Assembly (NCBI GenBank): GCA_009777995.1 | Contig: WRKT01000004.1 | Coordinates: 62,001 to 126,000, forward strand | Direction: 5' to 3' | DNA from: Treponema sp. | GTDB taxonomy: Bacteria > Spirochaetota > Spirochaetia > Treponematales > Breznakiellaceae | DNA length: 64,000 nucleotides | The notes under the pieces: generated by a model | Databases searched by the model: none | Seen by the model: only the letters and a program-made list of their open reading frames with translations | What the model was told of the DNA's origin: nothing | Translations under genes and position numbers: made by a program | Shown here: positions 4,549-54,971 of the stretch, piece after piece | Layout: every line of letters starts with the position of its first letter | Position numbering within the stretch: position 1 is the stretch's first letter

Positions 4549-4603
4549 TAGCCCAAAATACCAAAACAAAATACCCCAAAAAACAAAAATAAACTACCCC
4601 AAA
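4549..4603. repeat. TA(C/G)CCCAAA motifs at 23-bp spacing
   Basis: TAGCCCAAA at 4549, TACCCCAAA at 4572 and TACCCCAAA at 4595 are each 23 bp apart, and the next step of 23 lands on the TTGACA -35 box at 4618 of the DUF4143 promoter. Between the motifs the sequence is A-rich and partly conserved. Confidence 0.65.
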
Positions 4604-4617
4604 TTACTTAAAATTTC

Positions 4618-4651
4618 TTGACAAAAAATGCCTCTTTTGATATGCTAAAAT
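4618..4651 (+). promoter_or_regulatory. Promoter of the first DUF4143 gene, with leaderless or near-leaderless start
   Basis: TTGACA (4618-4623), 17 bases, TATGCT (4641-4646). A second TANNNT box, TAAAAT (4646-4651), shares its first T and stands exactly six bases before the ATG at 4658. Either box leaves a leader of 0-5 bases and no room for a ribosome site. Confidence 0.7.
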
Positions 4652-4657
4652 TAGAGA

Positions 4658-5950
4658 ATGAAAGCCGATTATTTGCCCAGAATTGTTGATACACTGCTTA
4701 AAGAGCGTCTGGACTCTATAGGAGCCGTGTTAATTGCAGGCCCCAAGTGGTGCGGAAAGACTACTACTGCAGAACAGCAGGCAAAGAGCGTATTAAAATT
4801 GCAAGACCCTGATAAAACAAAGGCATATCTGGCAACAGCCGAGGTCAAACCTTCACTTTTACTTAACGGAGAAAATCCCAGGCTGATTGATGAATGGCAA
4901 ATGGCCCCTGTTTTATGGGACGCAGTAAGAAGCGCAGTAGATATACGCGGTGAAACAGGACTTTTTATACTTACAGGTTCAACAACTGTTGATGAATCGA
5001 CAATTATGCACTCAGGTACAGGACGTATCTCCCGTATAGTCATGTATCCAATGAGTTTATATGAATCAGGAGAATCAAACGGAAAGATTTCTTTAAGCGC
5101 TTTATTCGAAAATCCGGAGTTGGATATTGATGGTATCACTACTAATTTAACAATAGAAAATCTAGTCTTTGCAACTTGCCGCGGTGGTTGGCCATCAAGC
5201 TTGAGCAGGAAAACAGAAAAAGCAATGCTTTTCGAAGCACAGAACTACCTTGCCAATATCTGTGATAGCGATGCTTCATCTATAGATGGAATTAAAAGAA
5301 GTCCAGAACGAGTAAAAGCTGTTATTCGATCTTATGCAAGAAATATCTCTACCCTTGCCACAAATAAAACAATACATGGTGATGTATCATCAAACTATAT
5401 TGATATTTCGGAGCCTTCTCTATTCTCATATTTAAACGCATTGGAAAGGCTTTATGTGATTGAAGACATCCCTGCATGGCAACCATCTATACGTTCGGCA
5501 ACTACAATACGCTCGGCAAAGAAAAAATCATTCGTAGATCCATCTATTGCAGTTGCTGCTTTATCACTGTCTCCTGAAACGTTATTAATGGACCTTAATA
5601 CATTTGGCTTTCTATTTGAGTGTCTGTGCAATAGAGATTTAAAAATTTATTCCTCCGCCATAGGGGGGCGTGCATCTTATTACCGCGACAGATATGGTAT
5701 GGAAGCAGATTGTGTATTACATCTGGCAGATGGTCGTTATGCTCTTATTGAGATCAAGCTTGGAAGCCGAGAGATCGAAGAAGGTGCAGCTCGCCTGGTT
5801 AAACTAAAAAACCTTATTCATAAGGCAAATAACGAAAAAGAGGCCAAACATCGCGAACCGGATCTACTTATCGTGATTACAGGCGGGGAAATGGCATATA
5901 CAAGAAATGACGGTGTTAAGATTATCCCAATCGGAACACTTAAAAACTAA
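4658..5950 (+). CDS. DUF4143 AAA-type ATPase with PD-(D/E)XK-like C-terminus
   Basis: A 430-residue ATPase. Walker A is GPKWCGKTT (residues 28-36), Walker B is PRLIDEWQ (about 74-81), and a sensor-like FILTGST follows. The C-terminal DUF4143 part holds EADCVLHLADGRYALIEIKLG, the D...ExK pattern of the PD-(D/E)XK nuclease fold. The biological role of this widespread family is unknown. It is a standalone gene facing metK, with a leaderless-type start and 23-bp phased motifs upstream. A second, clearly divergent 430-residue member lies at 12089-13381. Confidence 0.88.
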   Translation: MKADYLPRIVDTLLKERLDSIGAVLIAGPKWCGKTTTAEQQAKSVLKLQDPDKTKAYLATAEVKPSLLLNGENPRLIDEWQMAPVLWDAVRSAVDIRGETGLFILTGSTTVDESTIMHSGTGRISRIVMYPMSLYESGESNGKISLSALFENPELDIDGITTNLTIENLVFATCRGGWPSSLSRKTEKAMLFEAQNYLANICDSDASSIDGIKRSPERVKAVIRSYARNISTLATNKTIHGDVSSNYIDISEPSLFSYLNALERLYVIEDIPAWQPSIRSATTIRSAKKKSFVDPSIAVAALSLSPETLLMDLNTFGFLFECLCNRDLKIYSSAIGGRASYYRDRYGMEADCVLHLADGRYALIEIKLGSREIEEGAARLVKLKNLIHKANNEKEAKHREPDLLIVITGGEMAYTRNDGVKIIPIGTLKN

Positions 5951-9938: not shown

Positions 9939-11954
9939 ATGAGCAGAATAGGAAAAAGATTGATAGGGGCAGCGATCCCCGTGGCAGCCCTTAGAACGGA
10001 AAAAAGCATAGGCGTCGGAGAGTTCTCTGACCTTGGCGAATTCGGTGCATTATGCGTAAAAATGGGCATAGGGCTTGTGCAGATTCTCCCCGTAAACGAT
10101 ACCGGCTACCAGAGCTCCCCCTATAGCGCCCTAACAGCTTTTGGCCTACATCCCCTTTACCTGCGAATAGGTGATATCTCGGGGACTTCAGGATATGAAA
10201 AAGAGATAGCGGCAATGCAGAAAAAGTTCAACTCTGCAATACGATTCTCTCATGGAGATATACTCAGAGCGAAACTTGATCTTCTAAGAAAAATCTATAA
10301 GGATAATGCAAAGAAAATTTCAAGCTCCTCAAAACTGAAAACCTGGATAGAAGAAAACCAATGGATAAAACCTTACGCCGTTTTTCGAAGCCTAAAGGAA
10401 GCTAATAACGAAAAAAGCTGGAAGGAATGGGACGAATACCGTGAAATCGATGCCGAAGGCATTGCCGCTCTCTGGAACGAGCCTTCCCGAAAGGAGGAAA
10501 ACCTCTTCTGGGCCTGGGTTCAACAGAATCTGGACATCCAGTTTTCTCATGCAGCCTCACAGTTGGAGAGCCTTGGGATACTTCTTGAGGGGGATCTTCC
10601 AATTTTAATGAATGATGATTCCTGCGATGTTTGGGCCCATACCGAAATCTTTGATATTAACCAATCGGCAGGCGCCCCCCCCGATATGTATAGCCCCGAA
10701 GGTCAAAACTGGGGCTTCCCCACCTATAATTGGCAGGCCCAATCCCAAGATGAGTATACATGGTGGAAAGCTCGTCTAAAGGCTGCAGAAAAGTACTATA
10801 AAGCCTATCGAATCGACCATGTTCTCGGCTTTTTCCGCATTTGGGCCTCAAGAAAGGAAGATATTTCTGCTGCTCAAGGGCGATTTATCCCTTATTTACC
10901 TATAGTTCCAAAGGATTTTATCGATCTAAAGTATGATGAAGGCAGAATACGCTGGATCTGCGAGCCTCATATACTTACGGGAGATGTTTGGGATGCTCTT
11001 AAAGAAGGTTGGGGCGGCCAATACAGTGAAGATGAACTTAGTACTGCCGCAAACAGAGTCTTTGACCAGGTCCTATTCAGGGTTGGAGATGAAGAACTCT
11101 GGCTTTTCAAGAAATGGATAAGGGGCGAGAAGGATATTTTAAATCTTGATATTCACCATGCAGCAAAAACCTTTTTATTAAAGAGATGGACAGACAGGAT
11201 CCTATTTGAGCATGAAAAAGACCAATTTTTCCCCGTATGGTACTATAAGGACTCAAACGCATATATTTCCCTGCCAAAGGCAGACAGGGAGGAGCTGGAT
11301 AAACTGGTAGAAAAAAGGCTCACTGCCTCAGAAAAAATCTGGGAAGCAGAGGGCAAACGCCTCCTTTCAATGCTGACAGTCTCAAGTCCTATGCTGCCCT
11401 GTGCAGAAGACCTCGGTGCAGTCCCCGCCTGCGTGCCGCAAGTGCTGACCCAGCTCAATATCCTCGGGCTCAGGGTGGTGAGGTGGCACCGTGACTGGGG
11501 CGCCGAAGGCCAACCGTATATCCCCTTCGAGGACTACCCTGAGCTTTCAGTTTGCACCCCCGCAGTGCACGACTCTTCCTGCCTAAGGGAATGGTGGGAC
11601 ACGGAGGCAGATCAACAGGCTTTCTGCAGTTTCATAGGCGTTCCATCCCTTCCCAGGGTCTATAACCCGGGTAGTGCAAAGACCATCCTTTCGCGTATTG
11701 CAAGTGCCGCCTCAAGATTCCGTGTCTTCCAGATTCAAGACTTTCTTCACCTTTCCAACCGCTGGTACGCCGCAGACCCTGCCTCAGAGAGGATAAACGT
11801 GCCGGGCACAACGAACGACTTCAACTGGACCTACCGTCTGCCCGCAAACATCAGCGAGCTGGCCAAGGACGAGGACCTTATCCGCGCAGTCTCCGAGCTC
11901 GCTGCAGTCAAGCCTGCTGTGAAGAAAAAGCCAAATCGTTCGCCTAAAAAGTGA
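9939..11954 (+). CDS. malQ: 4-alpha-glucanotransferase (amylomaltase)
   Basis: A 671-residue GH77 enzyme that moves alpha-1,4-glucan segments between maltodextrins. Markers include the opening GVGEFSDLGEFGALC, QILPVNDTGYQSSPYSALTAFGLHPLYL, the nucleophile region YRIDHVLGFFRIW, and the acid/base region CAEDLGAVP. Length is somewhat above the common 500 because this is the longer MalQ form with an inserted region. The last residues (KKKPNRSPKK) come from the start of a 23-bp tandem repeat that runs into the next promoter. The 3' quarter is more GC-rich than the 5' part. The start shows the leaderless TATAGT-N6-ATG layout. Confidence 0.93.
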   Translation: MSRIGKRLIGAAIPVAALRTEKSIGVGEFSDLGEFGALCVKMGIGLVQILPVNDTGYQSSPYSALTAFGLHPLYLRIGDISGTSGYEKEIAAMQKKFNSAIRFSHGDILRAKLDLLRKIYKDNAKKISSSSKLKTWIEENQWIKPYAVFRSLKEANNEKSWKEWDEYREIDAEGIAALWNEPSRKEENLFWAWVQQNLDIQFSHAASQLESLGILLEGDLPILMNDDSCDVWAHTEIFDINQSAGAPPDMYSPEGQNWGFPTYNWQAQSQDEYTWWKARLKAAEKYYKAYRIDHVLGFFRIWASRKEDISAAQGRFIPYLPIVPKDFIDLKYDEGRIRWICEPHILTGDVWDALKEGWGGQYSEDELSTAANRVFDQVLFRVGDEELWLFKKWIRGEKDILNLDIHHAAKTFLLKRWTDRILFEHEKDQFFPVWYYKDSNAYISLPKADREELDKLVEKRLTASEKIWEAEGKRLLSMLTVSSPMLPCAEDLGAVPACVPQVLTQLNILGLRVVRWHRDWGAEGQPYIPFEDYPELSVCTPAVHDSSCLREWWDTEADQQAFCSFIGVPSLPRVYNPGSAKTILSRIASAASRFRVFQIQDFLHLSNRWYAADPASERINVPGTTNDFNWTYRLPANISELAKDEDLIRAVSELAAVKPAVKKKPNRSPKK

Positions 11955-12069
11955 CAAATCGTTGACTTAAAAATGTCCAAATCGTTAACTTACAGAAGGG
12001 CAAATCGTTGACCTATAAGTGTCCAAATTGTTGACTTTCAGAGGGGTAAATCGTTGACTTTCAAATAGG
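11932..12069 (+). repeat. Six tandem 23-bp units upstream of the second DUF4143 gene
   Basis: Units begin at 11932, 11955, 11978, 12001, 12024 and 12047, each exactly 23 bp. The left half is conserved (CAAATCGTTGACTT, one or a few changes per unit; the first unit is the most divergent) and the right half alternates: units 2 and 4 end in TGTC or GTGTC, units 3 and 5 in GAAGGG or GAGGGG, giving a 46-bp higher-order period. The first unit lies inside the malQ coding end; the last supplies the -35 box of the next promoter. Confidence 0.95.
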
Positions 12070-12082
12070 AAAATAGTATAAT
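12054..12082 (+). promoter_or_regulatory. Leaderless promoter of the second DUF4143 gene
   Basis: TTGACT (12054-12059, within the last 23-bp unit), 17 bases, TATAAT (12077-12082), six bases, ATG at 12089. The predicted transcription start is the start codon itself. Confidence 0.8.
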
Positions 12083-12088
12083 TAACCT

Positions 12089-13381
12089 ATGGTCGGGCAT
12101 TATGATAGGTTGATTGAGCCTTATTTAGTGAATTTAATGAAAGACTTCCCTGCTATTGCCATCGATGGCCTTAAAGGCGTTGGCAAAACTGTATCTGCAA
12201 AGAGAATAGCAACAACGGTATTTGAACTGGACAAGCCAAGGGATTTTGATCAGATAAATAATATCCCGGATACCCTCATCTCAAATACCCCGCCGGTTCT
12301 TATTGATGAATGGCAAAGAATACCCTCAGTCTGGGATTTTATCCGCCGTGCTGTAGACGACGGTGCTAAACCGGGTACATTTCTCCTTACAGGCTCAATT
12401 ACAAGCACAGATACCAACTTGCATTCAGGTGCCGGGCGAATTATCAAGAGAAAGATGTACCCCTTATCACTTGCCGAAAGGGGCATTGAGAAGCCTTGTG
12501 TCTCCATAGCGGAGCTTTTCTCTGCCGGGAGTCCCTTTTCAACAGAAATATCGGGCAAAACAGATGTAGGGAGTAGAGAGTATATATACGAAATCTCGGC
12601 ATCGGGCCTCCCTGAAATACGTAATTTCTCAATTGAAAACAGGAAAATTGCCCTGGAATCGTATTTCGCGAATATCCTATCCCACGATTTCCGTCAGCAA
12701 GGCATAAGGATAAGGCAACCGGAAACCCTGCTGCGCTGGCTTAGAGCATATGCCACCGCCATTTCCACAGATGCGCTCTATACAGAGATACTTGACGCTT
12801 CAACAGCAGGGGAGGCAGACAAACCCGCTGCAAAGACAACTATTTCATATCGTGAGGCCCTTGAGAACTTATGGCTCTTGGACGAGCTAATGCCCTGGGT
12901 TGATGGTGAAGGGTTTTTCACAGGGTTAAAACTATCACCAAAGCATTATCTGGCTGACCCTGCCTTCGCTGCATACCTTCTTGGCCTCGATGAGACAATT
13001 ATGATTGGAGGAACCGGCTGGCCGGCAGGCACAGAAAGGTTTGATGCAAAATACGGAAGCATAATCGGCAGGCTTTTTGAATCTCTAGTCCATCTAAGCC
13101 TAAATACCTATGCCATGATAAACAATGCAAAACTCTTTTTTCTAAAGACTCATAAAGGGGATCGTGAAATCGATTTCATTATCCGGAAAGATTCAAAAGT
13201 AATTGCCTGCGAAGTAAAGTTCGCCCCCACAGTTGATGCCGCCGACGGCAGGCACCTGAGATGGTTCATGGAGAAAGTCGGCAGCAGTTGCATAGATGCA
13301 ATGATAATAACCACAGGCGGGGTCGCATACAGGCGCAAAGACGGGATCGCTGTTGTGCCTGCGGCCCTGCTTGGGGCTTAG
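12089..13381 (+). CDS. DUF4143 AAA-type ATPase with PD-(D/E)XK-like C-terminus (second copy)
   Basis: Also 430 residues. Walker A is GLKGVGKTV (residues 27-35), Walker B PVLIDEWQ, sensor FLLTGSI, and the C-terminus carries DREIDFIIRKDSKVIACEVKF, the D...ExK pattern of PD-(D/E)XK folds. It is the same length and layout as the copy at 4658 but too divergent to be a recent duplicate. An esterase gene follows 19 bp downstream with its own ribosome site, so they may form an operon. Function of the family is not established; the upstream 23-bp array may be its control region. Confidence 0.88.
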   Translation: MVGHYDRLIEPYLVNLMKDFPAIAIDGLKGVGKTVSAKRIATTVFELDKPRDFDQINNIPDTLISNTPPVLIDEWQRIPSVWDFIRRAVDDGAKPGTFLLTGSITSTDTNLHSGAGRIIKRKMYPLSLAERGIEKPCVSIAELFSAGSPFSTEISGKTDVGSREYIYEISASGLPEIRNFSIENRKIALESYFANILSHDFRQQGIRIRQPETLLRWLRAYATAISTDALYTEILDASTAGEADKPAAKTTISYREALENLWLLDELMPWVDGEGFFTGLKLSPKHYLADPAFAAYLLGLDETIMIGGTGWPAGTERFDAKYGSIIGRLFESLVHLSLNTYAMINNAKLFFLKTHKGDREIDFIIRKDSKVIACEVKFAPTVDAADGRHLRWFMEKVGSSCIDAMIITTGGVAYRRKDGIAVVPAALLGA

Positions 13382-54929: not shown

Positions 54930-54971
54930 TGTCATCATATATGCGTCATATATGACGCATATATGATGACA
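54930..54971. repeat. Perfect 42-bp palindrome with no spacer
   Basis: From TGTCATCATATATGCG at 54930 to the mirror half ending in ATGATGACA at 54971, each arm is 21 bp and the centre is CATA|TATG at 54950/54951. No T-run follows on either strand, so it is not an ordinary terminator. It lies between the unknown gene at 54464 and the GNAT gene. Confidence 0.9.

What the first reader, a model, noticed from the sequence alone, without database searches (positions are those of the whole stretch)
11932..12089. 23-bp tandem array with 46-bp higher-order period feeding a leaderless DUF4143 promoter
Seen: six contiguous 23-bp units with a conserved CAAATCGTTGACTT half and an alternating second half, the last unit supplying the TTGACT -35 box and the gene starting at the predicted transcription start. 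Each unit carries a -35-like TTGAC, so the array could bind a protein in a regular line, 23 bp being about two helix turns plus two bases. The first unit is used to encode the malQ C-terminus, suggesting the array grew into that gene. Inference: an iteron-type control region for the ATPase.
Basis: partly seen in the sequence, partly recalled or inferred. Interest (0 to 1): 0.85.

Follow-up and report, generated by a model that had tools for sequence, protein, structure and literature searches.

The report
Gene-private promoter arrays of DUF4143 ATPase-nucleases
A widespread one-gene family of ATPase-nucleases, listed as a candidate phage-defence system but never tested, carries in front of most copies a private row of DNA repeats whose spacing is fixed by the protein's branch (23 bp here) while the letters differ from gene to gene, and the last repeat usually overlaps the gene's own promoter, so it looks like a built-in control switch.

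Summary
The array is real: six contiguous 23-bp units (11932-12069), with a TTGACT/17-bp/TATAAT promoter whose -35 lies in the last unit and whose -10 ends 6 nt before the ATG (leaderless). It is not a local oddity. All 55 subfamily relatives examined in the same order have lag-23 arrays upstream. So do 59 of 79 relatives from at least 14 phyla, archaea included. Unit sequences are gene-specific; the period is not. A second DUF4143 subfamily uses 32/33 bp (86 of 111), the sister ATPase_2+DUF234 family shows about 15 bp (21 of 30, 13 significant), and a third DUF4143 group has none (0 of 10). Flanking controls show about 1%. At one site, relatives differ by array plus gene together; two identical proteins have arrays differing by exactly one unit. 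The protein is a STAND-like ATPase + winged helix + PD-(D/E)XK nuclease, PADLOC candidate defence PDC-S01. Most likely the protein binds its array and represses its own promoter. DNA binding is inferred, not shown; protein-unit coupling tests were suggestive but not robust. The 46-bp higher-order period is not a family trait. "Grew into malQ" is better read as insertion of the cassette behind malQ.

The parts
11932..12069 (+). six contiguous 23-bp units: CAAATCGTTCGCCTAAAAAGTGA, CAAATCGTTGACTTAAAAATGTC, CAAATCGTTAACTTACAGAAGGG, CAAATCGTTGACCTATAAGTGTC, CAAATTGTTGACTTTCAGAGGGG, TAAATCGTTGACTTTCAAATAGG
   Evidence: relatives
12054..12082 (+). sigma70-type promoter: -35 TTGACT (12054-12059, inside unit 6), 17-bp spacer, -10 TATAAT (12077-12082)
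   Evidence: -35 inside array in 39 of 55 relatives
12083..12088 (+). 6 nt between -10 and ATG: predicted transcription start at or near the ATG (leaderless)
12089..13381 (+). DUF4143 gene, 430 aa: AAA_14 ATPase (about 21-130, Walker A GLKGVGKT), predicted winged helix (about 205-290), PD-(D/E)XK-like nuclease (about 295-430; E331, D362, E375, K377 invariant in 24 relatives); PADLOC PDC-S01
9939..11954 (+). malQ (4-alpha-glucanotransferase); its C-terminus (...KKKPNRSPKK) and stop codon run into unit 1
4552..4607 (+). second, unrelated 23-bp array (CCCAAAATACAAAAACAAAATAC) in front of a second DUF4143 gene
4658..5950 (+). second DUF4143 gene of the same subfamily (L022)

Best explanation
The array is the gene's own operator. 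SHOWN: array and gene occur together, the period is fixed by the protein's clade (23; 32/33; about 15 in the sister family), the letters are private to each gene lineage, and the array end normally covers the -35 box of a promoter that is often leaderless. INFERRED: the encoded STAND-like ATPase/winged-helix/nuclease binds one unit per protomer (or per dimer), the period being set by protein size and oligomer geometry, and lines up along the DNA. Occupancy of the last unit hides the -35 box, so the protein represses its own gene and stays at a low, tightly buffered level. When the ATPase is triggered (perhaps by an invader, if it is a defence gene) it leaves the array, which would derepress the gene and free the nuclease. 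Arrays gain and lose whole units quickly, and the cassette (array + gene) is gained or lost as one piece.
For: Lag-23 array in 55 of 55 subfamily-A genes of the order (50 by TRF>=60, the other 5; dinucleotide-shuffled upstreams 1 of 2280); 53 (lag 23) + 6 (lag 46) of 79 A relatives from at least 14 phyla incl. archaeal Thermoplasmatota; subfamily B 86 of 111 at 32/33/65/66; DUF4143 group E 0 of 10. Controls: downstream of the same genes lag 23 in 1 of 226, other ORFs lag 23 in 2 of 257 and none at 32/33. Period follows the protein tree (16 changes versus 43 shuffled). Promoter-like site in 43 of 55 (20% in shuffles), -35 inside the array in 39. Site with/without: G060/G064/G006 carry, G002/G044 lack, array plus gene as one block. 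Identical proteins L075/L076 with arrays differing by exactly one unit. 98 arrays share a weak 23-bp frame in fixed orientation to the gene (8.3 bits versus 4.0 in permuted units). The predicted winged helix supplies a possible DNA reader. Sister family ATPase_2+DUF234 (PDC-S27): best lag 15 in 21 of 30, 13 significant, palindromic units.
Against: No binding, expression or phenotype data. The test whether unit sequence tracks the recognition helix was positive with one similarity measure (residues 236-262 best of all protein windows) but not robust: with a register-free measure helix and wing rank among the top in A but not alone, subfamily B shows nothing at the winged helix, and column-wise mutual information shows no enrichment. 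In STAND proteins the winged helix often does not touch DNA (background knowledge). Thirteen of 79 distant relatives show no significant array and group E DUF4143 genes have none, so the array is not needed by every such protein. Autorepression as opposed to autoactivation is not distinguished.
Confidence: 0.6

Rival explanations
1. The array is the target or attachment site of the nuclease: it serves spread or homing of the one-gene cassette rather than regulation.
For: The protein has an intact PD-(D/E)XK motif; many paralogs per genome (13 DUF4143 genes here); presence/absence of array + gene as one block at one site; patchy distribution.
Against: Arrays lie upstream at the promoter, not downstream; no terminal repeats or target duplication were obvious at the one resolved site; no array with this core and without the gene was seen in the own genome.
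Confidence: 0.12
2. A host regulator, not the encoded protein, binds the array.
For: Tandem operator arrays of small regulators are known (RptR, PMC12255303).
Against: The same 23-bp period occurs in at least 14 phyla and in archaea, period follows protein clade, and three paralogs in one genome have three unrelated units.
Confidence: 0.08
3. The array is a sensor or decoy: invader proteins or invader DNA resembling it compete for the ATPase, and this competition is the trigger.
For: Candidate defence family (PMC12988326); units diversify fast between genes while period stays fixed.
Against: No match of this array in plasmid records; phage records were searched only for the protein; no invader arrays were found.
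Confidence: 0.12
4. Neutral minisatellite made by repeated duplication of promoter DNA; 23 bp is simply the -35 to -10 start distance (6+17).
For: In the window and many relatives -35 and -10 starts are exactly 23 bp apart; arrays change copy number.
Against: Archaeal arrays have the same period; subfamily B has 32/33 and the sister family about 15; other genes rarely have such arrays; common frame in units across phyla.
Confidence: 0.05

Closest known systems
PDC-S01 / PDC-S27 (PADLOC phage-defence candidates; AAA_14+DUF4143 and ATPase_2+DUF234)
   Same: The window protein hits PDC-S01 (1.4e-59); ATPase_2 relatives with arrays hit PDC-S27. PMC12988326 calls PDC-S01 the fourth most common defence across prokaryotes, both with ATPase + PD-(D/E)XK domains, unvalidated.
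   Different: In the passages I read, no cognate promoter array is described for either. Not every PDC-S01 protein has one (L013 and L014 do not).
RptR operator (PMC12255303)
   Same: Autorepressor of a defence island binding direct repeats that overlap its promoter.
   Different: Small dedicated repressor with 9-bp repeats of one conserved palindrome; here the presumed binder is the large ATPase-nuclease itself, with 23-bp units and letters private to each gene.
Plasmid iterons / parC-type centromere arrays
   Same: Tandem units at helical spacing upstream of the gene of a presumed binder, autoregulation (background knowledge).
   Different: No Rep or Par domain, position between ordinary genes on a 151.9-kb contig, no replication or partition role indicated.
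BrickBuilt MITE of Porphyromonas gingivalis (PMC4596501)
   Same: Contiguous 23-nt tandem repeats.
   Different: Lies inside a MITE with small inverted ends, at unrelated genes; no DUF4143 link in the passages read.

Membership tests
PDC-S01 (PADLOC) | full-length match to a PDC-S01 profile | tested here: met
   PDLC04790, E 1.4e-59, residues 3-428
PDC-S01 (PADLOC) | ATPase fused to PD-(D/E)XK-like domain with intact catalytic residues | tested here: met
   AAA_14; E331, D362, E375, K377 invariant; C-terminal model matches McrC, Can2, Holliday resolvases at modest scores
PDC-S01 (PADLOC) | anti-phage activity | not testable with these tools
   family reported as unvalidated
STAND ATPases | STAND fold: ATPase core followed by helical and winged-helix domains | tested here: met
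   2qen Z 14.6, 2fna Z 13.1, plant NLRs and CED-4 Z 10-12; AlphaFold pLDDT 86.9. Fold level only; signature motifs beyond Walker A/B not checked.
Plasmid iteron / replication origin | gene product is a Rep initiator | tested here: not met
   Pfam finds AAA_14 and DUF4143 only
Plasmid iteron / replication origin | repeats needed for replication | not testable with these tools
   151.9-kb contig, array between malQ and an esterase-like gene
CRISPR array | repeats separated by unique spacers | tested here: not met
   units are contiguous, no spacers; array lies upstream of the predicted transcription start
BrickBuilt-type MITE | inverted-repeat ends around the repeat array | not tested
   no TIR search was run at this locus; none obvious at the resolved site

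The most novel reading that the evidence does not exclude
Two of the commonest unvalidated candidate defence families (PDC-S01, PDC-S27) share one principle: a STAND ATPase-nuclease is parked on a private, period-coded promoter array, and leaving the array upon a trigger both releases the nuclease and derepresses the gene. Period is a constant of the protein branch, letters are the address of each copy, so many paralogs can coexist in one cell without cross-talk.
Probability: 0.25. Interest if true: 0.92.

Novelty: new variant of a known kind. Interest (0 to 1): 0.8.

Why it matters
PDC-S01 is reported as the fourth commonest defence candidate in prokaryotes, with 9,986 copies detected in archaea and 29,494 in bacteria and no known mechanism (PMC12988326). 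A promoter array with a clade-fixed period gives a concrete handle: it names a DNA ligand to test for thousands of proteins, predicts self-control, gives an annotation signature, and may make the binding specificity of each paralog readable from the DNA. I found no description of it in the held papers (DUF4143 itself occurs in one paper), though most subscription journals and preprints are not held.

Tried and rejected
Searching the genome for the 13-bp core: outside this array only scattered single hits. 46-bp dimer unit as family design: rejected. Localising protein-unit coupling to the recognition helix: positive with fixed register, not robust otherwise, so not counted as proof. BrickBuilt link: nothing on DUF4143 found in that paper. 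Array match in plasmids: none. DUF4143 relatives in phage records: only 5 unannotated metagenomic records. Solved homologs by sequence: none beyond P-loop hits. In a first pass minus-strand loci were read on the wrong strand; corrected. Rfam was not searched because the array lies upstream of the predicted transcript.

Full report
Observation. The array exists as described: six contiguous 23-bp units at 11932-12069, a TTGACT-17-TATAAT promoter whose -35 lies in unit 6, and 6 nt from the -10 box to the ATG at 12089. malQ's stop codon ends unit 1. The match count of the core exceeds all 100 shuffles. The 46-bp period is weak here and not general.

It is not local. The own genome holds 13 DUF4143 genes. 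Six of them have arrays just upstream, each with unrelated letters: 23 bp in front of the window gene, the second DUF4143 gene of the window (array 4552-4607, gene 4658-5950) and L020; 32-33 bp in front of L018, L021 and L024. Period goes with protein type: the three 23-bp genes belong to one subfamily (A; alignment), the three 32-33-bp genes to another (B; tree).

Scale and controls. In the genomes of the same order that were searched (244 for A, 197 for B), the 23-bp subfamily (A) gives 50 of 55 arrays by Tandem Repeats Finder at score 60 or more, and the other five have lag 23 as best lag above shuffles. Dinucleotide-shuffled upstream regions give 1 of 2280. Ten DUF4143 genes of another group (E) give none. 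Subfamily B: of 111 genes, best significant lag 33 in 51, 32 in 29, 65/66 in 6, something else in 4, none in 21. Downstream of the same genes lag 23 is found in 1 of 226; upstream of other ORFs in 2 of 257, and 32/33 in none. On the protein tree the period classes need 16 changes versus 43 when shuffled; some 'none' labels there are missed weak arrays.

Breadth. Of 79 with enough upstream DNA, 53 have significant best lag 23, 6 have 46, 13 are not significant. They come from Actinomycetota, Acidobacteriota, Bacillota, Bacteroidota, Chloroflexota, Elusimicrobiota, Gemmatimonadota, Kiritimatiellota, Myxococcota, Planctomycetota, Pseudomonadota, Spirochaetota and others, and from archaeal Thermoplasmatota. 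Archaeal promoters have no -35/-10 spacing (background knowledge), so the shared 23 bp cannot be just promoter geometry, though in bacteria 23 is also the start-to-start distance of the two boxes (6+17).

Letters. Units of 98 arrays, aligned in a circle, share a weak common frame (about tTGcCAaaTcgCcGaaTgAAAAa; 8.3 bits versus 4.0 for column-permuted units), in one orientation to the gene. Within this frame the letters are specific to ortholog groups: the TTGCTTTTTGC unit of L020 recurs at its orthologs in other genomes (L060, L065, L073, L077, L038), not at its paralogs in the own genome.

Promoter. A sigma70-like promoter is found in 43 of 55 A genes of the order (20% of shuffles), with the -35 inside the array in 39. 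A TATAAT-like box ends exactly 6 nt before the ATG in 14 of 55 (largest peak at any offset in 200 shuffles: 6); none of the 19 genes with a box there (up to 2 mismatches) has a Shine-Dalgarno 5-mer. So a leaderless start is a recurrent design.

Evolution. In one genus the interval holding array plus gene is present in G060, G064 and G006 and absent in G002 and G044, with flanks 83-95% identical; the right edge is at the stop codon. Gain in some or precise loss in others cannot be told apart. G006 has more units than its orthologs. G229 and G216 encode identical proteins, yet their arrays differ by exactly one 23-bp unit. malQ orthologs in the genus (67-69% identical) end without array or gene, so the window's malQ tail most likely was made by insertion of the cassette rather than by growth of the array.

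Protein. AAA_14 + DUF4143. AlphaFold model pLDDT 86.9. VIA-align: archaeal ATPases 2qen Z 14.6 and 2fna Z 13.1, plant NLRs, CED-4 and EfAvs5 Z 10-12: a STAND-like ATPase with winged helix. C-terminal domain alone: modest Foldseek matches to McrC, Can2, R2 endonuclease and Holliday resolvases, and E331, D362, E375 and K377 are invariant: PD-(D/E)XK nuclease type. PADLOC names it PDC-S01, reported as the fourth commonest defence in prokaryotes and unvalidated (PMC12988326).

Sister family. ATPase_2+DUF234 proteins, three of which were scanned and match PDC-S27, have best lag 15 in 21 of 30 upstream regions, 13 above all shuffles, with palindromic units. The principle thus seems wider than DUF4143; this is based on 30 loci of one order.

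Mechanism. Best account: self-binding and self-repression, see Best explanation. Direct reading by the winged helix was tested three ways: partial Mantel in fixed register puts residues 236-262 (start of the recognition helix) first of about 95 windows; register-free similarity keeps wing and helix high in A but not unique, and gives nothing there in B; APC-corrected mutual information is not enriched. I count this as suggestive only.

Limits. Start codons were chosen by rule; loci are related, so counts are not independent events; the GTDB scan shows only the best 80 of at least 589; the literature covers open-licence papers only.

Noticed in passing
window 4552-5950: Second DUF4143 gene with its own, sequence-unrelated 23-bp array about 6 kb from the first.
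   Followed up: yes
window 54935-54966: Short 11-bp tandem array containing the palindrome CGTCATATATGACG; nine such sites (up to 1 mismatch) in the genome, none for the reversed control, two of them close to DUF4143 genes (C6:34644, C25:29291). Unexplained.
   Followed up: partly
L311-L340 upstream regions: ATPase_2+DUF234 (PDC-S27) genes carry promoter-proximal palindromic arrays of about 15 bp; L333 has instead about six 22-bp units.
   Followed up: partly
L078-L092, L027: DUF4143 genes outside subfamily A (groups C and D) also have 22/23/46-bp arrays, while group E (L013, L014, L023 type) has none: array gain or loss inside the family could be placed on a larger tree.
   Followed up: partly
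L114, L115, L122: Subfamily B genes with a single in-frame stop codon (TAG or TGA), arrays still detectable: recent pseudogenes or sequencing errors.
   Followed up: no
L131 (G091 malQ locus) 3' end: Long poly-C run at the contig end, probably an assembly artefact.
   Followed up: no
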